64,000 bases of DNA, from contig JANQQK010000079.1 in assembly GCA_028289375.1 (NCBI GenBank), forward strand, positions 1 to 64,000, read 5' to 3'. The translations under genes and the position numbers were made by a program. The notes under the pieces were generated by a model. It saw only the letters and a program-made list of their open reading frames with translations. It ran no database searches and had not been told where the DNA came from. Origin of the DNA: Phycisphaerae bacterium. Lineage in GTDB: Bacteria; Planctomycetota; Phycisphaerae; UBA1845. Shown here piece by piece: positions 20,611 through 30,975 of the stretch; positions within the stretch are counted from its first letter, which is position 1; each line of letters starts with the position of its first letter.

Positions 20611-20684
20611 GGGCTCATAGCTCAGTTGGCTAGAGCGCGTCGCTGATAACGACGAGGTCCCAGGTTCGAGTCCTGGTGGGCCCA
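20611..20684 (+). tRNA. tRNA-Ile (GAU)
   Basis: Full cloverleaf by hand. Acceptor GGGCTCA pairs with TGGGCCC (one G-U). The anticodon stem CGTCG/CGACG encloses the loop CTGATAA, with GAT at 20645-20647. The T arm has a canonical GTTCGAGTC-type loop. Discriminator A at 20684; CCA is not encoded. Confidence 0.95.
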
Positions 20685-20775
20685 TTCATTTCTTTCCGAT
20701 TTGCTCCGACTTGTTTTGGTTTTCGTTTCGATTGTTGTCGCTGCGCGGGCGCCGTTGGTTGTCCCGTCACACACG

Positions 20776-20841
20776 AGGGGTGACGCTACAGGAATGCAGG
20801 GGTGACGCTACAGGAGGTGCAGGGGTGACGCTACAGAATGG
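20776..20841 (+). repeat. Three tandem copies of a 22-23-bp unit
   Basis: Units starting AGGGGTGACGCTACAG at 20776, 20798 and 20821, differing only in the last few bases. They lie about 90 bp after tRNA-Ile and before the 3' end of rtcR. Direct tandem units with no spacers, so not a CRISPR. Confidence 0.85.
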
Positions 20842-20905
20842 TGGTGTGGCGGTTGCGACGGCATTGGGTGTGACGGAGCGTCCAAAAATCGTCGCGACTG
20901 CACGG

Positions 20906-22516
20906 CTACGACGCTTGCTCCTGAATCTTCTGCCAGGTCAGGTTGAATTTGGCGAGGTACTTGCGGAGGCGGTCGGCGTCGTTGGCGGTCTTGCGGCGTT
21001 GGCGTGAGGCGGCGAAGAGGCGTCGGCCTGCGTCGGAGAGCGATCGCGACGTTGCACAGACGTTGACGACGTGGGCGAGCTGCACGCGGTCGAAGTCGTC
21101 GATCCCGGCTGATTCATCGCTGAGCAACGTGTCCAACAATGCGGTGGTGACGCCGTTTTCCGTTTCACATTCCAGCATCGACCAACCCTGTTTCAGTCGG
21201 CGGATTTCATCTTCCACGACGTCGCGCGTGATGCGGCCTGACGGCGCCATGGTGGCCATGCGCGCGATGGCGGCGTTGAGGTCGCGGAAGTTGCCTCGCC
21301 AGTGGGCGTCGGGTGATTCGGCGAAGGCGGTGAAGGCGGTGAGGGCTTCCTTGTTGAATCGGAACATGCGGCCTGTGGTGGCGGTGATCTGTGCGAGTTC
21401 GTATTCGATGTTGGGTGCGATGTCTTCGCGGCGGTCGCGGAGACTTGGCATGGTGAAGGTCCAGAGGTTGATACGGGCGAGGAGGTCGTCGCGGAATCGG
21501 TTTTGGCGGACGGCGTCGCCGAGGTCGCGGTTGGTTCCGCAGATGAGTTGAAAGTCGCTGGCAACGTCTTTGTCACTACCGATCGGCAGGAAGCGCTTCT
21601 CTTCGATGGCGCGGAGCAGCATGGCCTGTTCGTCGATGCCGAGTTCGCCGACTTCGTCGAGGAAGAGGACGCCGCGGTCGGCTTCGCGGAGGAGTCCGGT
21701 GCGATCGGTGTTGGCGCCGGTGAAGGCGCCGCGTTTGTGGCCGAAGAGGGCGGACATGGCTGTGTCGCCTCGGAGGGTGGCGCAGTTGATCTCGACGAAT
21801 CGGCCGGCGAGGTTCTGACGGCTTCGTTTGAGGTCGTGGATGCGGCGGGCGAGGCTCGACTTGCCAACGCCGGTGGGGCCTGTGATCAGGATGGGGGCGG
21901 TGGCGTGGATGGCGACGTGTTCGATCTGGTCGATCATGCGGTTGAAGGCGCGGTTGCGGGTTTGGATGCCGGCCTTGAGGAAGTCGGACGCTTGGCGTTT
22001 TTCGTCGGCGAAGCGTTGGGCGATGCGGTCGTAGCGTGAGAGGTTGAGGTCGATGATGGCGTATCGGCCGGGGCTGTTGTGGTGGCGGCGATGGGGCGGG
22101 GCGGACTGAATGAGTTGGCCTGGGATGTGGCGTGATTCGGTGAGCAGGAAGAGGCAGATCTGGGCGACGTGGGTGCCGGTGGTGACATGGACGAGGTAGT
22201 CCTCGGATTCGGTGTCGAACGTGTAGCTTCGGGCGAAGTTGTGCAGGGCGGCGTAGACGTTTTCGAAATCCCACGGGTCGCGGAAGGGGACGTTGTGGAG
22301 ACGAACTTCGGTTTCGGGGGAGACCGTGTGGATGTCTTCGGCGACGTTTTGGGCCAGCGCGCGTGATCGCTTGTCGCAGAGCAATTCGAGTCGGGCGATG
22401 AGAAGGTCCTCGTGCTGGCAGAGGGAGACGGTGGGTCGCCACTGGTTCCAGCGTGACGGTCCTTCGCCGCGGTCGAGGGTGGTGCCGAGGAGTCCGATGG
22501 CGACCGTCTGGGGCAT
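20906..22516 (-). CDS. rtcR: RtcR, sigma54-dependent activator of RNA-repair genes
   Basis: 536 residues. The N-terminal domain (about 1-180) is the CARF-like RtcR sensor, including VHVTTGTHVAQICLFLL around 109-125. The AAA+ domain follows, with Walker A GPTGVGKS (213-220), the sigma54-contact loop GAFTGA (263-268), Walker B LFLDEVGEL and the sensor region. The C-terminus has a helix-turn-helix-like region (TSRSLSDAGRRLF). In E. coli RtcR activates rtcBA when its CARF domain senses RNA-damage products. Here it is divergent from rtcB, whose promoter has a good sigma54 element. The ATG at 22516 has no Shine-Dalgarno and sits 8 nt from a TATAAT, so its mRNA is probably leaderless. Confidence 0.95.
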   Translation of the reverse strand: MPQTVAIGLLGTTLDRGEGPSRWNQWRPTVSLCQHEDLLIARLELLCDKRSRALAQNVAEDIHTVSPETEVRLHNVPFRDPWDFENVYAALHNFARSYTFDTESEDYLVHVTTGTHVAQICLFLLTESRHIPGQLIQSAPPHRRHHNSPGRYAIIDLNLSRYDRIAQRFADEKRQASDFLKAGIQTRNRAFNRMIDQIEHVAIHATAPILITGPTGVGKSSLARRIHDLKRSRQNLAGRFVEINCATLRGDTAMSALFGHKRGAFTGANTDRTGLLREADRGVLFLDEVGELGIDEQAMLLRAIEEKRFLPIGSDKDVASDFQLICGTNRDLGDAVRQNRFRDDLLARINLWTFTMPSLRDRREDIAPNIEYELAQITATTGRMFRFNKEALTAFTAFAESPDAHWRGNFRDLNAAIARMATMAPSGRITRDVVEDEIRRLKQGWSMLECETENGVTTALLDTLLSDESAGIDDFDRVQLAHVVNVCATSRSLSDAGRRLFAASRQRRKTANDADRLRKYLAKFNLTWQKIQEQAS

Positions 22517-22524
22517 AGTGAAAA

Positions 22525-22552
22525 TTATAAGTCACTAGCATAATAGATCAAT
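22525..22552 (-). promoter_or_regulatory. Leaderless sigma70-type promoter of rtcR
   Basis: On the minus strand: TTGATC (22552-22547), 16-bp spacer, perfect TATAAT (22530-22525), then 8 nt to the rtcR ATG. Transcription should start at or next to the start codon. Confidence 0.65.
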
Positions 22553-22660
22553 CCTCTCCATTCCAACGTAGGTGGTTGAGTGGGGCTATTGTCGCGGATT
22601 GGCGCATAAATGTATTTAAAACAACGGCTTAACGTTTATCTTGACGGTTGTGAAGTCCAC

Positions 22661-22676
22661 TGGCACCGCGTGTGCT
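22661..22676 (+). promoter_or_regulatory. Sigma54 (-24/-12) promoter of the rtcB operon
   Basis: TGGCACCGCGTGTGCT: GG at -24 and GC at -12 with the exact sigma54 spacing and only small departures from TGGCACG-N4-TTGCW. The start site is expected near 22688, 38 nt before the rtcB ATG. A small palindrome AACGGCTTAACGTT lies upstream at 22623-22636. Confidence 0.8.
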
Positions 22677-22725
22677 TCATTCATCTTGGCAAGACTGAAG
22701 CGAATTGGAAATGGAGGCCAGGACG

Positions 22726-24237
22726 ATGACAACGACCACGACGCAAACGATGCAGAACGCACTGATCGAGACGGGCGACGCCACTGCGATGTTGCCGGTG
22801 GCGAATGGGACCATGAAGCCAGTGACGGTGATCGGGACGCCGGCGATCCGCGAGACGTTTGATGATGCGACGCTGCGGCAAACGATGAATGCGCGGATGG
22901 CGCCGGGTGTGGACAACGTCGTGCTGAACCCGGATGCGCACATTGGGTATGGCGCGCCGATCGGATGCGTCATGACATCGCGGTCGCACATCTATCCGGG
23001 GCCGGTGGGCGTGGACATCAAGTGTTCGATGAGCCTGTTGCAGTTGGACTTGCCGGCCGACGCGGTGGCTGACCGTCGGACGCGTCGGGCGGTGATCGAT
23101 GCAATCTGTGCACGGACGCCGACGGGTGCGGGACGTGGTCAGCGCAGTGTGCCGAAGTCGCGACCGGTATCACAGCCGTTGGGGCGTCGGGTTGTGGTGG
23201 AAGGTGCGTCGCGATCTGTTTGTGAGGCGTTGGGGATTCCGGCGCGTTGGGCGGACCGGTGCGAGGATGCGTTTCATGTTGGCCATGATGACACGCGTGA
23301 TGCGTTGGCGGCGCGGCTGGATTGGCTGCAGCACGGTGGTGCGATGAAGGAGTTCAAGGACAAGATCGCGCAGCTGGGTTCGTATGGCGGTGGCAATCAC
23401 TTCGGCGAGTGCGAGGTGGTGCGGGTGGCGGACAATGGCCGTGCGAAGCACTGTGCGGATGTGTTTGGATTGCGTGACGGGCATGTGGCGTTCTTGTCGC
23501 ACTGCGGTTCGCGTGGGTTTGGGCACAACTTGGCCGTCGGTCAGTTTCGGGCGTTGCAGGGCAAGTTCGAGCAGTGGGGGATTGGATACCCCGGTGATGA
23601 TCGGCACTTGTGCTACGCGCCGCTGGGAACGCGGGAAGCCAACGACTATCTGGACGACATGGCGCTGGGTGCGAACTTTGCGACGGTGAACCACCTGCTG
23701 ATCAACGCGCTGGTGCTGGAGGCGTTCGAGGAGGTCTTTCCGGGTGTGCATGGCGAGTTGGTTTACTTCATCAGCCACAACATCGCGCGGAAGGAGATCG
23801 TTGATGAGAAGCCGGCGTGGGTAATGCGGAAGGGCGCGACGCGTGCGTTTCCGGGCGGTCACCATGCGTTGAAGGGAACGCCGTTCGCCGTGACGGGCCA
23901 TCCGATTCTGCTGCCGGGCGATCCGCAGCGTGGGTCGGCGGTCATGGTGGCTGACAAGGGCGCCGAGCAGAGTTGCTACAGCGTGAACCATGGTGCGGGA
24001 CGTGTGCTGGGTCGCAAGCAGGCGATTCGGACGCTGGATCAGAAGTCGATCGACACGTCGTTTGAAGAGCGTGACATTCTGACGAATTGTCGCAAGTATC
24101 CGCGCGACGAAGCGCCGGCGGCGTACAAGGATTTTGACGAGGTGCTGCGTTCGGTGAAGACGGCTGGTCTGGCGTCGGAGGTGGCGCGTTTGCAGGCGAC
24201 GTTTGTTATAAAGGACGCTTCGAAAGCAGATGACTGA
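22726..24237 (+). CDS. rtcB: RNA-splicing ligase RtcB
   Basis: 503 residues from ATG 22726 (GGAGG 8 nt upstream). RtcB landmarks: GPVGVDIKCSM with the Mn2+ ligands D97 and C100, LGSYGGGNHFGE, HCGSRGFGHN, SHNIARKE, and SVNHGAGR whose His accepts GMP. It joins RNA 2',3'-cyclic phosphate or 3'-phosphate ends to 5'-OH ends using GTP. It differs from the E. coli form (VGVDIGCGM there, VGVDIKCSM here) and is about 95 residues longer. First gene of a three-gene operon: the next gene starts 8 nt after its stop. Regulated by RtcR through the sigma54 promoter at 22661. Confidence 0.95.
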   Translation: MTTTTTQTMQNALIETGDATAMLPVANGTMKPVTVIGTPAIRETFDDATLRQTMNARMAPGVDNVVLNPDAHIGYGAPIGCVMTSRSHIYPGPVGVDIKCSMSLLQLDLPADAVADRRTRRAVIDAICARTPTGAGRGQRSVPKSRPVSQPLGRRVVVEGASRSVCEALGIPARWADRCEDAFHVGHDDTRDALAARLDWLQHGGAMKEFKDKIAQLGSYGGGNHFGECEVVRVADNGRAKHCADVFGLRDGHVAFLSHCGSRGFGHNLAVGQFRALQGKFEQWGIGYPGDDRHLCYAPLGTREANDYLDDMALGANFATVNHLLINALVLEAFEEVFPGVHGELVYFISHNIARKEIVDEKPAWVMRKGATRAFPGGHHALKGTPFAVTGHPILLPGDPQRGSAVMVADKGAEQSCYSVNHGAGRVLGRKQAIRTLDQKSIDTSFEERDILTNCRKYPRDEAPAAYKDFDEVLRSVKTAGLASEVARLQATFVIKDASKADD

Positions 24238-24245
24238 GGTGTGAC

Positions 24246-25505
24246 GTGGTTGTTGATTGGGTTCTGACAGATCAGAAGTGGAAATACGAGGCCGTTCAGG
24301 TTGACTGCGGTGATGGAACCTACAGGGGGCCGGGACTCGGCCAGTGGAATCCGGAAAAGGGATATTGTCTCGACATGTTCGCGACACTGGTTCGCGGCAA
24401 CGCTCCAAAGTCGATTAGCATGGATCGAAGCACTCTGATTCTCCAAGAACGAGCATCGTCAATACGCCTGCGAGAAGCTGGACCTTCGCGCGGAGTTCTA
24501 TTTGTACGAGAGCAGGTCCGGCCGAGTCTTGGTTTGGTTGCGAACGGGCACCTGGAACTGCGAACTAATTCAGTGACTCATTGGACGCGAAACGGAATAC
24601 GGTTGTCGCATCCATCTGGGACGATTCTATTTCGCGGTCAGCAGCCTGCACTGCTTCCGCAGGGCGCTAAGACTGTGACATGCATCGACGAACGTCAAGT
24701 CTACGAGCGAACAAGCGGTGGGCTAGACTACGACAAGGACGGAGTTTCGTTCTGTATCCGCTCGATTCGGGACAATACTTATCAGATTGACTGGGGATTG
24801 CCGGAGAGAACTTCCCATGGTCCATCCGCGGGAGTGTGGGCAAGTGGGGTCATTCAGGCTTGGCAGTTTTTGCTCAGTGCAAGTGTCTTCCCCATAGGTT
24901 CAGAGTTCCAGAGGGATGATCGAAGAGTGACTGTCTACGCTGCACCTGATAAGCCAGTGGCTCTCAGAAGGATCGCTCTCTTGGATCAGGCGCGCCAAAT
25001 TTCAGGCAACGAACTGTACTTACTGTCAAGGTTGTTTGCAGGCCGATCTGTCGAGTCCATCATTGCTCAGAAGCTCCTTGCGCAGTGTTTCGATGCTGTG
25101 CGGAACACCAATTGGCAAGCCGTGATGTTCCTTATCGGTACTGCTCTGGAAGCTGTACTGCGGACGAAGTACGCTATCCCGTATGATCCGAAGAGGCATC
25201 GGACAGTGCGTATTCGAGAGTGCATTCAGTCGGTCTGCGTGGAGTACGTCATCCCGAGAATTTCTGAGGTATCGAATAAGGTCTGGCGTGCGTACAAGCG
25301 TGTTCGGCACCGTTCCGCGCATCCCGATTGGGTTAGTAGTTTTGGGGGTGCTGTTTGTTCAGCGAGAGAATTGGAGGCCCTTCATGATGTTTGTACTCTA
25401 ACGAGATTCTATGGATGTCTTATTTTAGCAATGGCAGGGATCAGTGAACTGGATGAAGAAGTGGCGATTCTTGTCGACGGTCTGAGGGGTCCCGGCGATG
25501 CGTAG
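24246..25505 (+). CDS. Putative HEPN-domain protein embedded in the rtc operon
   Basis: 419 residues; GTG 24246 directly after AGGTGA, 8 nt from the rtcB stop. Residues 1-230 form a beta-rich domain I cannot name. Residues about 245-400 are helical and contain RHRSAH (354-359), a fit to the HEPN RNase signature R-[N/H/K]-X3-H, preceded by FLIGTALEAVLRTKY. This organisation (beta-rich N-terminus, HEPN C-terminus) is like that of ApeA-type proteins, but homology is not shown. The last 8 nt overlap rtcA. Base composition is lower than both neighbours (31 of 60 G+C in 24901-24960 against 40 of 60 in 26041-26100), suggesting later insertion. It may be an RNase that makes or trims RNA ends handled by RtcB/RtcA, or an RNA-binding sensor. 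Confidence 0.7.
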   Translation: MVVDWVLTDQKWKYEAVQVDCGDGTYRGPGLGQWNPEKGYCLDMFATLVRGNAPKSISMDRSTLILQERASSIRLREAGPSRGVLFVREQVRPSLGLVANGHLELRTNSVTHWTRNGIRLSHPSGTILFRGQQPALLPQGAKTVTCIDERQVYERTSGGLDYDKDGVSFCIRSIRDNTYQIDWGLPERTSHGPSAGVWASGVIQAWQFLLSASVFPIGSEFQRDDRRVTVYAAPDKPVALRRIALLDQARQISGNELYLLSRLFAGRSVESIIAQKLLAQCFDAVRNTNWQAVMFLIGTALEAVLRTKYAIPYDPKRHRTVRIRECIQSVCVEYVIPRISEVSNKVWRAYKRVRHRSAHPDWVSSFGGAVCSARELEALHDVCTLTRFYGCLILAMAGISELDEEVAILVDGLRGPGDA

Positions 25506-26547
25506 TGTCCATCGAGAGTATGCAAGTGCCCTGCACATCGACGGATCACACGGCGAGGGTGGCGGGCAAATACTGCGGTCGTCGTTGGCGCTGGCGATCA
25601 TGACGGGCAAGCCTTTTCGCATCGACAACATTCGGGCGAAGCGGAAGAAGTCGGGATTGATGCGGCAGCACCTGACAGCCGTGCAGGCGGCGACACAGAT
25701 CAGTGGCGCGGAAACGCTCGGGGCGGCCATCGGGTCGTCGCGCGTCGATTTCACCCCTGGGGCAGTGGCCGGTGGCGAATACACGTTCAGCATCGGGACA
25801 GCCGGCAGCACGACGCTCGTGTTGCAGACGGTGCTGCTGCCGTTGGCGTTGGCGGATCGGCCAAGTCGCGTCGTGCTCGAAGGCGGGACGCACAATCCGT
25901 TTGCGCCGCCGTTTGATTTTCTCGACCGCGTGTACATCCCGCTGTTGAACCGCATGGGGGCGCGCGTGTCGGCCACGCTGGAGCGACCGGGTTTCTACCC
26001 GGCTGGTGGCGGGCGGATCGTGGTGGAGATCACGCCGGCGAAGGCGTTGTCGCCGTTGGAGTTGGGTGAGCGTGGGGCGTTGAAGCGTCGCCATGCGCGG
26101 GCGGTGGTGTCGAATCTGCCGCGTGACATCGCCGAGCGCGAATTGGACGTGGTGCGTCGCAAGCTGGAGATGAAGCCGGACGAGATGGAGGTCGTGGAGG
26201 TCGAAAGGCCCGTTGGTCCGGGCAACATTGTGACGATCGAGGTCGAGCACGAGCATGCGCGCGAGCTGTTCACCGGGTTTGGCGAGGTGGGTCGGTCGGC
26301 CAATAGGGTGGCGGGGCATGCGGTGCAGCAGTGTCAGCGGTATCTGCATAGCGAGGCGGTGGCGGGTGAGTATCTGACCGATCAGCTGATGCTGCCACTG
26401 GCGATGGCGGGCGGCGGGCTGTTTCGGTCGGTGGGCATGTCGCGACACGCGGAGACGCACGCGGAGCTGATCGGGATGTTCACGAATGTGCGTGTCGACG
26501 TGGAGCCGTGCGAGGGAGGTGGCGTGCTGGTGCGGCTGGCGACGTGA
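25498..26547 (+). CDS. rtcA: RNA 3'-terminal phosphate cyclase RtcA
   Basis: 349 residues, normal for the family. ATG 25498 overlaps the preceding gene by 8 bases. Landmarks: DGSHGEGGGQILRSSLALA near the N-terminus, THNPFAPPFDFL, ERPGFYPAGGGRI, and C-terminal MSRHAETHAELI, whose H317 (HxxT context) is the likely AMP-accepting His. RtcA converts RNA 3'-phosphates to 2',3'-cyclic phosphates, which RtcB can ligate. It is the third gene of the RtcR-controlled operon. The tRNA-Ala gene follows about 110 bp later with its own promoter. Confidence 0.95.
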   Translation: MRSVHREYASALHIDGSHGEGGGQILRSSLALAIMTGKPFRIDNIRAKRKKSGLMRQHLTAVQAATQISGAETLGAAIGSSRVDFTPGAVAGGEYTFSIGTAGSTTLVLQTVLLPLALADRPSRVVLEGGTHNPFAPPFDFLDRVYIPLLNRMGARVSATLERPGFYPAGGGRIVVEITPAKALSPLELGERGALKRRHARAVVSNLPRDIAERELDVVRRKLEMKPDEMEVVEVERPVGPGNIVTIEVEHEHARELFTGFGEVGRSANRVAGHAVQQCQRYLHSEAVAGEYLTDQLMLPLAMAGGGLFRSVGMSRHAETHAELIGMFTNVRVDVEPCEGGGVLVRLAT

Positions 26548-26616
26548 CGGCTGGTAAGTGTGGGGGCGTCGGCGATGGTTGCGATAACGTCGCGGGAATC
26601 GGCATCTCGGCGGTGA

Positions 26617-26645
26617 TTGCAACGGAGTGGTCAGGGTGCTATGAT
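26617..26645 (+). promoter_or_regulatory. Promoter for tRNA-Ala
   Basis: TTGCAA (26617-26622), 17-bp spacer, TATGAT (26640-26645). The start site is predicted near 26652, just before the tRNA at 26661. Confidence 0.7.
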
Positions 26646-26660
26646 TTCGCGAACCCTGAA

Positions 26661-26733
26661 GGGGCCGTAGCTCAATTGGGAGAGCGCCTGGTTTGCAACC
26701 AGGAGGTTGCCGGATCGTCCCCGGTCGGCTCCA
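26661..26733 (+). tRNA. tRNA-Ala (UGC) with unusual T-loop
   Basis: Acceptor GGGGCCG pairs with CGGCTCC; D arm GCTC/GAGC; anticodon stem CCTGG/CCAGG with loop TTTGCAA, anticodon TGC at 26694-26696. The T stem GCCGG/CCGGT encloses ATCGTCC. Position 54 is A and position 58 is T, the reverse of the nearly universal T54-A58 pair. Discriminator A; CCA not encoded. A strong promoter lies upstream, which argues that it is expressed. Confidence 0.88.
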
Positions 26734-27125: not shown

Positions 27126-27620
27126 TTACTTGTGCCGGAGTGTGCTTCTGGCTATCGATTGGCCGCACTCCGGACATCGCCCCGTCGTGTTGGCGGTCAG
27201 GTCGTAGCCGCAGCCGGGGCAGTGGCCGGGCGGATGTCGCCTGTCGCGACGGAAGAGCCATGCCGTCGCCAATGCGGTGGGAAGCAAGAGGCACCAGAGG
27301 GGGACTATCATCAACGAGAAACCTTGGCCGAGGAAGTCGCCGGATTCGTAACGCGGAGACCAATTCCAACTCTGCGCGGGCGATGTATTCCAGGAAACCG
27401 AATAGCGGTTCGATGCCCCAGATTGCTGCACATCTTCGTTCATTCCAAAAACGATTGCACTCCCTCCTTCGATGAACCAATCGTGGCGTGTTCCCCGGAG
27501 GAAGTAGCTGAAGGCGAAGCGGCCAAGTATTGTCGCAATTATCGCCGCAACAAGCGCGATGCTCGCAACAAGGAATACCCACTTCAGCTTGGAACGACGG
27601 TGTTTTAGAAGCGTTTCCAT
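27126..27620 (-). CDS. Two-TM zinc-ribbon protein, array unit 1
   Basis: 164 residues. ATG at 27620 has no Shine-Dalgarno; TATACT lies exactly 7 nt upstream. Layout shared by the whole array: basic start (HRRSKLKWVF), TM helix at about 13-35, an external segment of about 60 residues with Trp/Arg-rich WNWSPRYESG, a second TM helix (VPLWCLLLPTALATAWLF), the basic motif RRDRRHPP and a zinc ribbon GHCPGCGYDL...GRCPECGQ (CX2C-X11-CX2C). Both ends should be cytoplasmic. Function unknown; similar short zinc-ribbon membrane proteins are frequent as hypotheticals in planctomycetes (recollection, not searched). Confidence 0.8.
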   Translation of the reverse strand: METLLKHRRSKLKWVFLVASIALVAAIIATILGRFAFSYFLRGTRHDWFIEGGSAIVFGMNEDVQQSGASNRYSVSWNTSPAQSWNWSPRYESGDFLGQGFSLMIVPLWCLLLPTALATAWLFRRDRRHPPGHCPGCGYDLTANTTGRCPECGQSIARSTLRHK

Positions 27621-27627
27621 GGCTCGG

Positions 27628-27633
27628 AGTATA
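27628..27633 (-). promoter_or_regulatory. -10 hexamer TATACT of array unit 1
   Basis: Minus-strand TGGTATACT (extended -10 form) ending 7 nt before the ATG at 27620, implying a leaderless mRNA. About 50 bp around it are nearly identical to the region before the gene starting at 30007. Confidence 0.6.
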
Positions 27634-27656
27634 CCACTTAATCGAAGATGCGATTG

Positions 27657-27728
27657 CTACGCCGCCTGCCCGCATTCCGGACATCGTCCGGTTGTATTCG
27701 CGGTCAGGTCGTAGCCGCGCTTGTGGTA
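27657..27728 (-). pseudogene. In-frame zinc-ribbon remnant after a premature stop
   Basis: Directly after the TAA that ends the gene at 27729, the same frame continues for 23 residues, reading YHKRGYDLTANTTGRCPEC then GQAA and a TAG at 27657. Aligned with intact units, the TAA replaces the His of PGHC, and the first two zinc Cys are Tyr and Arg, with no length change. This is a decayed half zinc ribbon. Confidence 0.85.
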
Positions 27729-28568
27729 TTAACCGGGCGTACGTCGCCTGTCGCGATAGAATAGCAACGCCGTGCACACCCCTAACGGGAGCAATAGACA
27801 CCAAAGGGGCAACACGAATTCATTGTGGCCGCTGCTCTTTTGCCTGAATCCTGGCAACCACCGCCATGGCCACGGATTGGGGTTTAGGGTCAATATTACG
27901 CGTGCACGCGGATTTTCTTCTGTGCGTGCCACCGCGAATTCGCCGCCACTGATGTGCCCTGCATTCGCGATGCGCTCGTACGGAATATACCAAACAAAGC
28001 TGCCAAACATGGATAGGCCAATTACAACAGCAAGCATCATGGACACGCCAAGCAACACCCACTTCAGTTTGTATGGGCGTTTTCTGAAAAGCCCTCTCAT
28101 GAGTTCGAGCCGCCCGCGTGGCTTGACAATCGGTTGCACGGTCGCCTGCCCGCACTCGGGGCACGTGCCAGTCGTGTTCGCGGTCAGGTTGTAGCCGCAG
28201 TTGCGACAGTGGCCAGGAGGACGTTGTCTGTCGCGGTAGAACAGCCAGCCCGTCACCAGTATGAGGGGTACGAGGAGGCACCACAGCGGCAGATACCAAT
28301 ACTGGGCTGCACTGCTCCCTCCCGGCAACCAATGCCAACCCTCGTGCGCTTTCCCAAACACGAGATGCGCTGTACCGCGTATCATCCACGGATCCGGGGT
28401 CAGAGTGATGCATCCGCGGACAATCGCCAAAGTGAACTGGCGCTTATAGTTGATGTGCAACCACAGACTGCCGAACAACGTGCCTGCCATCGCCATTGCA
28501 ACCGCGATGCTTGCGACGAGGAACAACCACTTCAGTCTGGACGGACGGTGTCTTGGAAGCGCCTTCAT
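27729..28568 (-). CDS. Fused double zinc-ribbon membrane protein, array units 2 and 3
   Basis: 279 residues from ATG 28568, 7 nt after TATACT. Residues 1-150 are a complete unit: HRPSRLKWLFLVAS TM helix, W-rich loop, second TM, and a zinc ribbon GHCRNCGYNL...GTCPECGQ. A short linker (VQPIVKPRGRLELMRGLF) leads directly into a second unit (RKRPYKLKWVLLGVS and a second TM pair) that ends at RDRRRTPG, just before its zinc ribbon would begin. Two formerly separate genes have been joined and the second has lost its ribbon to a stop codon; the remnant is readable at 27657-27728. The fusion should have four TM helices. Confidence 0.8.
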   Translation of the reverse strand: MKALPRHRPSRLKWLFLVASIAVAMAMAGTLFGSLWLHINYKRQFTLAIVRGCITLTPDPWMIRGTAHLVFGKAHEGWHWLPGGSSAAQYWYLPLWCLLVPLILVTGWLFYRDRQRPPGHCRNCGYNLTANTTGTCPECGQATVQPIVKPRGRLELMRGLFRKRPYKLKWVLLGVSMMLAVVIGLSMFGSFVWYIPYERIANAGHISGGEFAVARTEENPRARVILTLNPNPWPWRWLPGFRQKSSGHNEFVLPLWCLLLPLGVCTALLFYRDRRRTPG

Positions 28569-28575
28569 AAAGCAC

Positions 28576-28581
28576 AGTATA
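28576..28581 (-). promoter_or_regulatory. -10 hexamer TATACT of array unit 2
   Basis: Minus-strand TGGTATACT, extended -10 type, ending 7 nt before the ATG at 28568; no Shine-Dalgarno in between. Confidence 0.6.
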
Positions 28582-28604
28582 CCAAATGATTGTTGGAATG
28601 ACCG

Positions 28605-29051
28605 TTACGCAACCTGCCCGCACTCCGGACATCGTCCGGTTGTATTCGCGGTCAGGTCGTAGCCGCAGCCGTGGCAGTGACCGAGCGAATGTCGCCTGTC
28701 GCGACGGAACAGCCACAGCGTTGTCAATACCGAGAGAAGCAAGGGGCACCACAGGGGTATCGCGCATCCCATCCAGGCACCACGGCGACCAGGTGAGTAG
28801 TACGGCAACCATTCCCACCGCATGGCCTGAGATGTGATGTGCCAAGAAGCGTCGAGGCGCGGGTGATTCGGAGGGCGAACTGCCATGATACGTCCGCCTT
28901 GGACGAACCCCAAATGCCTGAAGCCCCCGCGCGGGACTCCCCACGAGAGAGAGCCCAACAGCGTCCCGATCATCGCCGCACTTATCGCGATACTGGCGAC
29001 AAGGAACACCCATTTCAGCTTGGATCGTCTGTGTTTCAGAGTGGCAGCCAT
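28605..29051 (-). CDS. Two-TM zinc-ribbon protein, array unit 4
   Basis: 148 residues from ATG 29051. N-terminus LKHRRSKLKWVFLVASIAI is almost the same as in unit 1. The loop contains MRWEWLPYYSPGRRGAW, the second TM is IPLWCPLLLSVLTTLWLF, and the end is RRDRRHSLGHCHGCGYDL...GRCPECGQVA. All four zinc Cys are intact. The external loop differs in sequence from the other units while the two ends are conserved, so the loop is the variable part of the family. The gene has its own -10 hexamer at 29059. Confidence 0.8.
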   Translation of the reverse strand: MAATLKHRRSKLKWVFLVASIAISAAMIGTLLGSLSWGVPRGGFRHLGFVQGGRIMAVRPPNHPRLDASWHITSQAMRWEWLPYYSPGRRGAWMGCAIPLWCPLLLSVLTTLWLFRRDRRHSLGHCHGCGYDLTANTTGRCPECGQVA

Positions 29052-29058
29052 GGTTCGG

Positions 29059-29064
29059 AGTATA
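29059..29064 (-). promoter_or_regulatory. -10 hexamer TATACT of array unit 4
   Basis: Ends 7 nt before the ATG at 29051. The preceding bases are CGG rather than TGG, so no extended -10 here. Confidence 0.55.
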
Positions 29065-29072
29065 CCGCTTGT

Positions 29073-29519
29073 CTATTGAGAGGTATCCTGCGCAGATACG
29101 CCACATTCTGGGCAGGTGCCCGATGTGTTGCCTGCAAGGTTGTACCCGCAGAGATCGCAATGGCCCTCAGGGGGTCGCCGGTCGCGTCGGAATAGGATGA
29201 TGGTGACAAGGGTCCACGGAACAAGAATATAGATCAGGGGAACGCCGAAGTAAGTCACGCGATGGTCGGACCAGAACCACGGACGCCACCTCCATTCAAC
29301 GGCGCCAAAAACAACCCACGGGCGTTCGTCCGGGTCAGAGGGGTAGGTGCTAAAGACGACGCATCCGCCCCATGCACCGAGGTAAAACGGCGGGTTTGCG
29401 CCTCGCGAGACGCCTATTCCACCAAACAGCATCGCGACGAGGGCGACTACGATCAGCATGCACACTGCGAAGGCAATCCACTTGAGGCGGGAGCGGCGAC
29501 GTGGGGAATGATCTGCCAT
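29073..29519 (-). CDS. Two-TM zinc-ribbon protein, array unit 5 (divergent)
   Basis: 148 residues from the ATG at 29519. The open frame runs far upstream, but that extension is an out-of-phase reading of units 6 and 7. ATG 29519 is supported by a TATAGT ending exactly 7 nt upstream, as in the other units; an ATG at 29525 is too close to it. N-terminus RRRSRLKWIAFAVCMLIVV, W-rich loop (VEWRWRPWFWSDHR), second TM, RRDRRPPEGHCDLCGYNL...GTCPECG. More divergent than units 1, 4 and 6. Confidence 0.78.
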   Translation of the reverse strand: MADHSPRRRSRLKWIAFAVCMLIVVALVAMLFGGIGVSRGANPPFYLGAWGGCVVFSTYPSDPDERPWVVFGAVEWRWRPWFWSDHRVTYFGVPLIYILVPWTLVTIILFRRDRRPPEGHCDLCGYNLAGNTSGTCPECGVSAQDTSQ

Positions 29520-29526
29520 GTTCATG

Positions 29527-29532
29527 ACTATA
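29527..29532 (-). promoter_or_regulatory. -10 hexamer TATAGT of array unit 5
   Basis: Ends 7 nt before the ATG at 29519 and overlaps the stop codon of the upstream unit (29528-29530). Confidence 0.5.
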
Positions 29533-30007
29533 TCGTGTGCGTCGTTGAATTCACTGCACCGCACTCCGGACATCGGCCGGTCGTGTTGCCGGTCAGGTCG
29601 TAGCCGCAGCCGTGGCAGTGACCGGGCGGATGTCGCCTGTCGCGACGGAACAGCCACACCGTCACCAATGCGGTGGGAAGCAAGGGGCACCAGAGGGGGA
29701 CTGCCAATGAAAACCATCCGATACCGGAGATGTTGCCGGATCGGTATCGCGGGCGCCAGATCCATTCTCGCGCGGGCATCATACCCCAAGAAGCCGTATA
29801 TGGGTTTGAAAACTCGGCTTGCTTCGGACCGGTAGTCCCAATCATGACGATCCTCCCACCTCCGAGCACCGTGTGTGGGCCCTCTTGGCTGTAACTGAAC
29901 TTGAAGGTGACAAAGAGTGTAGCAACCATCACTACTGCAATTGTGATGCTCACGACAAGGAACACCCATTTCAGCTTGAATCGATGGCGTTTCGGAGGTG
30001 CTGCCAT
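29528..30007 (-). CDS. Two-TM zinc-ribbon protein, array unit 6
   Basis: 159 residues from ATG 30007. N-terminus RHRFKLKWVFLVVSITIAV, a loop ending REWIWRPRYRSGNISG, second TM VPLWCPLLPTALVTVWLF, then RRDRRHPPGHCHGCGYDL...GRCPECG and a short tail NSTTHTI that differs from the other units. All zinc Cys are present. The DNA for the C-terminal half is very close to that of unit 1 (27167-27260) and unit 4 (28621-28710), and the promoter region matches that of unit 1, pointing to recent duplication. Confidence 0.8.
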   Translation of the reverse strand: MAAPPKRHRFKLKWVFLVVSITIAVVMVATLFVTFKFSYSQEGPHTVLGGGRIVMIGTTGPKQAEFSNPYTASWGMMPAREWIWRPRYRSGNISGIGWFSLAVPLWCPLLPTALVTVWLFRRDRRHPPGHCHGCGYDLTGNTTGRCPECGAVNSTTHTI

Positions 30008-30014
30008 GGCTCGG

Positions 30015-30020
30015 AGTATA
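30015..30020 (-). promoter_or_regulatory. -10 hexamer TATACT of array unit 6
   Basis: TGGTATACT ending 7 nt before the ATG at 30007; the surrounding 50 bp match the promoter region of unit 1. Confidence 0.6.
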
Positions 30021-30043
30021 CCACTTAATCGACGATGCGATTG

Positions 30044-30508
30044 CTACGCAACCTGCCCGCACTCGGGACATCGCCCGGTCGTGTTGCCGGTCAGGTTGTA
30101 GTCGCACTGCGCGCAACGATCGGGTCGGCTGCGTTTGTCCGGGATGGTCCAGGCGAACACGACAAGCCCCAGCACGCCACTGATGAGGGACAGCAAGCCA
30201 AGGTCGACGGCGATGTGGCTCATGCCCGATGAGAAGCAGGGCGGGTACGGCGGCATTTTCGGTAGCGGTTTCGGCTGTGTCTTGTTGGTGTGGCAGTTGA
30301 TGCCGCTGCCGAGGTACAGCTTTCCGCCGGCGATGAAGACGCACGTTTCGTGTTTATTGACTTGCCAGAGAAGCCAATGTCGCGATTCCGCAAATGATCG
30401 CATCACCAGTGTCATGAGGAAAACAGCCACGACAAGCAACACGCCCGAGACACAAAGGCCCCTCAGTTTCGTCCTAGATTTTGATTGCTGTTTGCGTGTC
30501 TCGCTCAT
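30044..30508 (-). CDS. Two-TM zinc-ribbon protein, array unit 7
   Basis: 154 residues from ATG 30508. First TM at about 16-36 (LCVSGVLLVVAVFLMTLVM), a longer Pro-rich external loop (KTQPKPLPKMPPYPP), second TM (LLSLISGVLGLVVFAWTI), then DRCAQCDYNLTGNTTGRCPECGQVA. The zinc ribbon is clearly homologous to the other units, but the TM parts are only similar in layout. It is the one member with no -10 hexamer at the 7-nt position; instead its start overlaps the end of unit 8 by 35 nt, so it is probably translated from the same mRNA. Confidence 0.75.
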   Translation of the reverse strand: MSETRKQQSKSRTKLRGLCVSGVLLVVAVFLMTLVMRSFAESRHWLLWQVNKHETCVFIAGGKLYLGSGINCHTNKTQPKPLPKMPPYPPCFSSGMSHIAVDLGLLSLISGVLGLVVFAWTIPDKRSRPDRCAQCDYNLTGNTTGRCPECGQVA

Positions 30509-30962
30509 CTTCGACTAGCCCATTTGTCAAACAGTGCCCGCACTCCGGACATCGCCCGGAAGTGTTGGCTGTCAGATCGTATCCGCATCTTCGGCACCGT
30601 CCGATGGCTGATCTGCGATCACGTCGAAACGACCAATTCGAAACGGGACCCAGCATGATCGATGGATAGAGCAATGGAACCATGACGACGAAAGTGCGGG
30701 CGTCGGACCGGTAGTATGGCAGCCAAACGATCCTCTTGATTCGAAAAGACCCAACGAACCACCCCTGAGCAAGATCGGCTGGAATGCGGCGCACACAGAG
30801 TGCCCCACTTCGGAGGTAGATGAGTGTGCCTTCGCCTTGGTGGTTCGCCTGATAGCTGACTTGCCAGATCAGCGAGCAGGCGTAGCCAACTGAGAGCGAC
30901 ATGAAGGCCACCGTTAGAATCCAAGTGCGTAAGGATGATCTGGATTTCGGAGTCGCCTTCAT
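30474..30962 (-). CDS. Two-TM zinc-ribbon protein, array unit 8
   Basis: 162 residues from the ATG at 30962, chosen because TAAAAT ends exactly 7 nt upstream, as in the rest of the array; the frame itself extends further upstream to an ATG at 30971. N-terminal TM (WILTVAFMSLSVGYACSLIW), external loop with KRIVWLPYYRSDAR, second TM, then FRRDRRSAIGRCRRCGYDL...GRCPECGHCL. An acidic tail (VEDERDTQ) continues past the ribbon and overlaps unit 7. First transcribed member of the array. Confidence 0.78.
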   Translation of the reverse strand: MKATPKSRSSLRTWILTVAFMSLSVGYACSLIWQVSYQANHQGEGTLIYLRSGALCVRRIPADLAQGWFVGSFRIKRIVWLPYYRSDARTFVVMVPLLYPSIMLGPVSNWSFRRDRRSAIGRCRRCGYDLTANTSGRCPECGHCLTNGLVEDERDTQTAIKI

Positions 30963-30969
30963 CCGGTTC

Positions 30970-30975
30970 ATTTTA
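30970..30975 (-). promoter_or_regulatory. -10 hexamer TAAAAT of array unit 8
   Basis: Ends 7 nt before the chosen ATG at 30962. Confidence 0.5.

What the first reader, a model, noticed from the sequence alone, without database searches (positions are those of the whole stretch)
27126..30962. Tandem array of two-TM zinc-ribbon proteins: eight units in under 4 kb
Seen: seven reading frames, all minus strand, each with a basic start, TM helix, W-rich external loop, second TM and a C-terminal CX2C-X11-CX2C ribbon with a conserved ...CPECG end. The ends are conserved and the loop is variable. The array follows directly after tRNA-Ala. Inference: loop variability with fixed cytoplasmic ribbon suggests a family of membrane sensors or binding proteins under diversifying duplication. 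I know of no described function for it.
Basis: partly seen in the sequence, partly recalled or inferred. Interest (0 to 1): 0.75.

Follow-up and report, generated by a model that had tools for sequence, protein, structure and literature searches.

The report
Tandem membrane zinc-ribbon gene family array
A run of eight related genes for small membrane proteins is one local cluster of a large, unnamed planctomycete protein family; the clusters grow by copying, recombination keeps swapping and evening out their shared ends while the outward-facing middle drifts apart, and what the proteins do is still untested.

Summary
In detail: seven minus-strand ORFs hold eight units at 27126-30962. Six units carry basic N-terminus, TM1, Trp-rich loop, TM2 and an intact CX2C-X11-CX2C ribbon; U6 is divergent; U2b has lost its ribbon to a stop and two Cys changes. 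The array is one outpost of an undescribed family: about 120 ribbon matches in this genome, related arrays in many Phycisphaerae genomes, no zinc-ribbon model of Pfam or NCBIfam matched above cut-off. AlphaFold gives a confident two-TM protein with a six-strand outer domain and no convincing known fold. The 'diversifying loops' reading is only partly supported. Between array units the ribbon DNA is nearly identical even at silent sites while loops are saturated, so recombination/gene conversion homogenises the ends; in the one syntenic single-copy orthologue the loop looks purified and the ribbon is silent-site saturated. Most units carry a -10-like hexamer exactly 7 nt before ATG: the exact motif occurs seven times in the genome, always before a ribbon gene. 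No conserved partner, toxin, phage or defence gene accompanies the arrays. Likeliest: membrane-anchored binding domains sharing a cytoplasmic zinc docking module, duplicated through shared end blocks; function unproven.

The parts
27126..27620 (-). U1, 164 aa, TM1-loop-TM2-zinc ribbon
28119..28568 (-). U2a, first half of a fused 279-aa ORF (27729-28568); complete unit with intact ribbon
27660..28100 (-). U2b, second half of the fused ORF; ribbon broken by a TAA stop at 27729-27731 and loss of both Cys of the first CX2C; 3' half of the ribbon DNA has a 43-bp exact match to U3
28605..29051 (-). U3, 148 aa; AlphaFold model mean pLDDT 85.9
29073..29519 (-). U4, 148 aa; diverged ribbon DNA (control for homogenisation)
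29528..30007 (-). U5, 159 aa
30044..30508 (-). U6, 154 aa, divergent member (unusual loop and TM2, ribbon intact); start overlaps the end of U7
30474..30962 (-). U7, 162 aa, first unit in transcription order
27618..27636 (-). promoter-like TGGTATACT-N7-ATG of U1
28566..28584 (-). promoter-like TGGTATACT-N7-ATG of U2a
29049..29065 (-). promoter-like GTATACT-N7-ATG of U3
30005..30023 (-). promoter-like TGGTATACT-N7-ATG of U5
29517..29532 (-). weaker -10-like TATAGT-N7-ATG of U4 (read by eye)
30960..30975 (-). weaker -10-like TAAAAT-N7-ATG of U7 (read by eye)

Best explanation
A lineage-specific tandem expansion of an undescribed Phycisphaerae family of two-TM zinc-ribbon proteins. Shown: each unit has two TM helices around a roughly 60-70-residue beta-rich domain (prediction) and, except U2b, an invariant four-Cys ribbon; the ribbon, intergenic and N-terminal DNA is shared between units and homogenised by recombination, and the middle is divergent; most units carry their own -10-like element 7 nt before ATG. 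Inferred: (1) N-in, loop-out, ribbon-in topology, with zinc bound by the four Cys; (2) transcription from each element gives leaderless mRNA, so each unit is a self-contained cassette that keeps working when copied; (3) unequal crossing-over and gene conversion through the shared end blocks expand, shrink and re-pair ends with middles; (4) the outer domains bind different extracytoplasmic ligands or partner proteins, and the constant ribbon docks all of them to one cytoplasmic or membrane partner. Steps 1-3 are likely (about 0.75); step 4 is a weak inference (about 0.35).
For: Anatomy: (net positive charge before TM1 and after TM2; four ribbon Cys invariant in 37 members; loop keeps a G/GW/W/PLW frame). 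Family spread: about 120 profile matches in own genome; 36 of 40 relatives match at E<=1e-10, many matches covering TM2 and ribbon only; other arrays; 13 of 28 same-class genomes against 1 of 266 others of the phylum. Homogenised ends: ribbon pS 0.06-0.35 against loop pS 0.5-0.8 in the core units; identical codons at shared residues U5-V1 27/28 in ribbon against 23/46 elsewhere, p=1.4e-5, U3-V1 p=3e-4, and p=0.0015-0.024 in a second genome's array; nearly every longest exact match lies in the TM2-end/ribbon stretch, up to 43-44 bp; PHI test p=0.001 and 0.002 at windows 5 and 10; nearest relative changes with region, e.g. U1 nearest U3 (N+TM1), U5 (loop), V2 (ribbon). Promoter: 7 of 7 genome-wide TGNTATAMT-N7-ATG hits precede ribbon genes, 0 in the reversed control; TATAAT-like hexamer at 6-7 nt before the start in 29/219 ribbon genes against 10/429 others, p=1.6e-7. 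Purifying selection on a single-copy loop: dN 0.34, dS about 2.4.
Against: No functional evidence of any kind. No fixed non-ribbon neighbour that could be the docking partner. PHI is not significant at window 20 (p=0.085), the codon tests are uncorrected for many non-independent pairs, and several pairs show no difference. Loop alignments between paralogues are weak, so loop pS values are rough. The second AlphaFold model of a distant relative was poorer (pLDDT 76.5; loop 50-76). The loop is also net positive (+2.5), so topology is not settled by charge. Leaderless transcription is inferred from sequence only.
Confidence: 0.55

Rival explanations
1. Near-neutral expansion: the shared ends are good recombination substrates and the copies carry a portable promoter, so the genes multiply and decay (birth and death) with little selected function in most copies.
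For: One of eight units is broken; copy number varies widely between relatives, from 0 to 33 matches at E<=1e-10; no conserved neighbours; arrays are lineage-specific.
Against: Seven of eight units keep intact frames; the four Cys are invariant and the loop keeps a conserved frame of G, W and P across the class; the single-copy orthologue looks purified in the loop.
Confidence: 0.25
2. A repertoire of membrane immunity or decoy proteins against toxins or phages delivered by neighbours, like the recombining tandem immunity genes esaG and tipC.
For: Same evolutionary pattern as reported for tipC and esaG: variable middle, homologous blocks at gene ends and intergenic DNA, tandem paralogues with broken copies (PMC9484751; here).
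Against: No toxin or secretion gene recurs next to the arrays; none in the flanks here, which are RtcR/RtcB/RtcA, baeRF10 and an Na/H-exchanger-type transporter; no PADLOC match of weight.
Confidence: 0.12
3. One reading: sensors whose loops are driven apart by positive selection.
For: Loop is by far the least conserved region in the family (mean top-residue frequency 0.29 against 0.84 in the ribbon).
Against: Silent sites in the loops are saturated too; the single-copy orthologue shows no excess of replacement changes; the contrast is increased by homogenised ends.
Confidence: 0.08
4. Cargo of a mobile element or phage integrated at tRNA-Ala.
For: The 3' end of tRNA-Ala faces the array.
Against: No repeat of the tRNA 3' end beyond the array, no base-composition shift, no plasmid relative, no phage family or viral fold match of weight.
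Confidence: 0.03

Closest known systems
Recombining tandem immunity genes of type VII secretion (esaG, tipC; Garrett et al. 2022, PMC9484751)
   Same: Tandem paralogues of variable copy number, conserved DNA blocks at gene ends and in intergenic DNA, variable middle, discordant relationships by region, occasional broken copies.
   Different: No toxin neighbour, no secretion system link, two TM helices plus zinc ribbon, own promoter-like element per unit; no immunity tested.
Small zinc-ribbon domains of Pfam (DZR PF12773, Zn_ribbon_15 PF17032, DUF7129 PF23455)
   Same: Two CX2C knuckles with CPECG-like second knuckle; weak partial matches.
   Different: No zinc-ribbon family reaches its curated cut-off in the seven window ORFs; none of the matches covers TM helices plus loop.
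Rubrerythrin-like ribbon domain NF033497
   Same: Weak match over about 20-25 ribbon residues (E 1.5e-4 at best).
   Different: Below cut-off (21.4 of 32 bits); at E<=0.01 only 5 of 37 members match.
Paralogue-rich planctomycete families (PMC8567305 and work cited there)
   Same: Paralogue expansion as a trend in the phylum.
   Different: That paper studies Tuwongella, another lineage, and the passages read do not describe this family.

Membership tests
T7SS-type tandem immunity genes (esaG/tipC-like) | Tandem paralogues recombining through conserved end blocks | tested here: met
T7SS-type tandem immunity genes (esaG/tipC-like) | Sequence family of EsaG, TipC or TsaI, or a cognate toxin gene nearby | tested here: not met
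   No such Pfam/NCBIfam family among the matches of the units; no recurring non-ribbon neighbour; housekeeping flanks
T7SS-type tandem immunity genes (esaG/tipC-like) | Protects the producer from a toxin | not testable with these tools
   needs experiment
Double zinc ribbon (Pfam DZR PF12773) | Reaches the curated gathering score | tested here: not met
   best 17.2 bits against 27.3
Two-TM zinc-ribbon family defined here | Four-Cys CX2C-X11-CX2C ribbon at the C-terminus | tested here: met
   all units except U2b
Two-TM zinc-ribbon family defined here | Two TM helices around a beta-rich loop domain | tested here: met
   AlphaFold of U3, pLDDT 85.9; distant member shows a similar order of elements at lower confidence
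Two-TM zinc-ribbon family defined here | Ribbon binds zinc in the cytoplasm | not tested
   inferred from four invariant Cys and flanking positive charge
tRNA-integrated genomic island | Direct repeat of the tRNA 3' end at the far border | tested here: not met
Known anti-phage defence proteins (PADLOC) | Convincing profile match | tested here: not met
   two stray single-member hits at E about 0.007-0.01

The most novel reading that the evidence does not exclude
Phycisphaerae keep a recombination-driven repertoire of surface-facing recognition proteins built as portable cassettes: own leaderless promoter, constant membrane/zinc frame, exchangeable outer beta domain, used for kin or phage recognition.
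Probability: 0.1. Interest if true: 0.75.

Novelty: new variant of a known kind. Interest (0 to 1): 0.45.

Why it matters
This is a very large dark gene family (about 120 ribbon matches in one 5-Mb genome) with no curated model matched, no solved relative and no paper found here. It gives a clean natural case of concerted evolution at gene ends with a diverging middle, and a class of bacteria in which leaderless, single-gene promoters may travel with the copied gene. Both are directly testable with RNA ends and strain genomes. If the outer domains recognise rivals or phages, it would be a new repertoire system.

Tried and rejected
Mobile island at tRNA-Ala: no 3'-end repeat. Plasmid relatives: none. 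Phage or defence origin: nothing of weight in PHROGs, PADLOC or viral structures. Fold: Foldseek against PDB gave nothing at E<=0.001; VIA best Z 5.2 to a CcmF stretch, within the noise range stated by the tool; the loop domain alone was not searched. PDB sequence hits are mainly designed zinc fingers sharing a short CPECG-like stretch, taken as chance. A Pfam hit above cut-off in the U2 ORF (DUF2627, 22 residues over TM2) is taken as a chance membrane match: no other array unit has it. Flank synteny in relatives: RtcA and baeRF10 are missing from the same-genus genome, so presence or absence of the array at this exact site could not be dated. Conserved neighbour genes: none beyond more ribbon genes. 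Papers: full-text searches found none describing the family.
Full report
Observation. The seven minus-strand frames and eight units are present at the stated coordinates. Transcription order is U7, U6, U5, U4, U3, U2a, U2b, U1. U2a and U2b share one 279-codon frame. U2b's ribbon is broken: where other units read GHCxxCGY it reads G-stop-YHKRGY, so the stop and both lost Cys sit within a few codons, which makes a single sequencing error unlikely. U6 keeps the ribbon but has an unusual loop and TM2. The tRNA-Ala gene ends 392 bp from the array, on the other strand.

Family. Profile search finds 120 matches at E<=0.01 in the 4.99-Mb genome; about 15 are full-length two-TM units, and many of the rest carry the ribbon on other membrane or larger proteins. 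A second array of three units (V1-V3, contig C92) is closest, with U3 58% identical to V2. Among 40 genomes searched as relatives (own included), 36 have matches at E<=1e-10, and many have their own arrays: loci L101, L102, L103, L099, L170 and L172 hold roughly seven to eleven ribbon ORFs each. In 294 Planctomycetota genomes the profile hits 13 of 28 in the same class and 1 of 266 others. Only 13 candidates per genome were scored there, so absence elsewhere is not proven. Named hits are nearly all Phycisphaerae or Planctomycetota MAGs; the two labelled Alphaproteobacteria and Dehalococcoidia may be mis-binned, which I did not test. No Pfam or NCBIfam zinc-ribbon model reaches its cut-off in the window units.

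Structure. AlphaFold on U3 with 36 relatives gives pLDDT 85.9, pTM 0.68: helix 11-32, six strands 34-99, helix 101-119, ribbon after it. Across 37 members the loop is 58-89 residues with 4.4 Trp on average and keeps a sparse frame (positions 33, 53, 69-70, 81 and 99-101 of U3, mostly W, G, GW, W, PLW), while the four ribbon Cys never vary. Net charge is +3.9 before TM1 and +2.6 after TM2, which fits both ends inside, although the loop is also +2.5, so the topology is only inferred. No solved or viral relative of weight was found.

How the array evolves. Among U1, U3, U5, U2b and V1-V3 the ribbon has pS 0.06-0.35 in most pairs, while loops have pS 0.5-0.8 and pN 0.4-0.7. Using only codons for the same residue in both copies, U5-V1 has 27/28 identical in the ribbon and 23/46 elsewhere (p=1.4e-5), and U3-V1 24/27 against 19/41 (p=3e-4); an array in another genome shows the same (p=0.0015-0.024), but several pairs do not. 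These p-values are uncorrected and the pairs are not independent. U4 and U7 show no such effect, and in the syntenic single-copy pair of this genome (C31) and its same-genus relative (G001 C116) the ribbon is saturated at silent sites (pS 0.80), so the ribbon DNA is not intrinsically frozen. The longest exact matches between copies lie in the TM2-end and ribbon stretch, up to 43-44 bp. PHI gives p=0.001, 0.002 and 0.085 at three window sizes. Nearest relatives differ by region. I read this as recombination or gene conversion through the shared ends, with old, diverged middles. In the single-copy pair the loop is 59% identical against 70-77% for the rest, with dN 0.34 and dS about 2.4: purifying, with a caution for saturation. 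The tree places array units, C92 units and C25 units together with one gene of the same-genus genome (SH-aLRT 97; core units 95), i.e. a lineage-specific expansion, though many forks are unresolved.

Promoter-like element. TGGTATACT-N5-8-ATG occurs six times in the genome, always before units of the C18 and C92 arrays. The wider TGNTATAMT-N7-ATG occurs seven times, the seventh before the first gene of a third ribbon array on C13, and never in the reversed control. U3 has CGGTATACT-N7-ATG; by eye U4 and U7 have TATAGT and TAAAAT at the same distance. Across the loci a TATAAT-like hexamer sits 6 or 7 nt before a start in 29 of 219 ribbon genes and 10 of 429 other genes (p=1.6e-7), against a background near 0.5% at most other distances; a minor peak at 23 nt is unexplained. 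A sigma-70 -10 box at this distance would start transcription at or beside the ATG (established knowledge), so these should be leaderless genes; this is not measured.

Context. Upstream are RtcR, RtcB, an unknown 419-aa gene and RtcA; downstream a baeRF10 protein and an Na/H-exchanger/TrkA-N transporter. Around some 95 loci, no non-ribbon family recurs next to ribbon genes in more than four loci. So no toxin, secretion or signalling partner is indicated.

Verdict. The array is real and belongs to a large unnamed family. The pattern works like recombining tandem immunity genes (PMC9484751) but it fails the membership features that could be tested (no family match, no toxin). The most likely function is a membrane-anchored outer binding domain with a shared cytoplasmic zinc ribbon, and that last step is a weak inference. 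Positive selection on loops is not shown.

Noticed in passing
window 20611-26733: An RNA-repair cluster (RtcR, RtcB, an unknown 419-aa gene at 24246-25505, RtcA) lies between tRNA-Ile(GAT) and tRNA-Ala(TGC), the two tRNAs usually found inside rRNA operons; Rfam finds no rRNA in the window.
   Followed up: partly
window 24246-25505: Unknown 419-aa protein between RtcB and RtcA with no Pfam match, overlapping the start of RtcA; possible new part of the repair operon.
   Followed up: no
L109 1252-2828, L107 2205-2942, L105 556-1275, L103 6558-7283, L101 16047-16778: A second ribbon family (N-terminal ribbon, RPWPL..RF.LS..AFE motif, C-terminal VGLY stretch) recurs beside the two-TM genes in several genomes; no Pfam match above cut-off in those tested.
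   Followed up: partly
all ribbon loci: Besides the 6-7 nt peak, a TATAAT-like hexamer also peaks 23 nt before candidate starts of ribbon genes (11 of 219 against 3 of 429); may reflect second in-frame starts.
   Followed up: no
L093 1346-3448: A different four-gene ribbon array (multi-TM type) whose first gene has the only other exact extended -10/N7/ATG element in the genome.
   Followed up: partly
L119, L160: Family hits in MAGs labelled Alphaproteobacteria and Dehalococcoidia; mis-binning or transfer not resolved.
   Followed up: no
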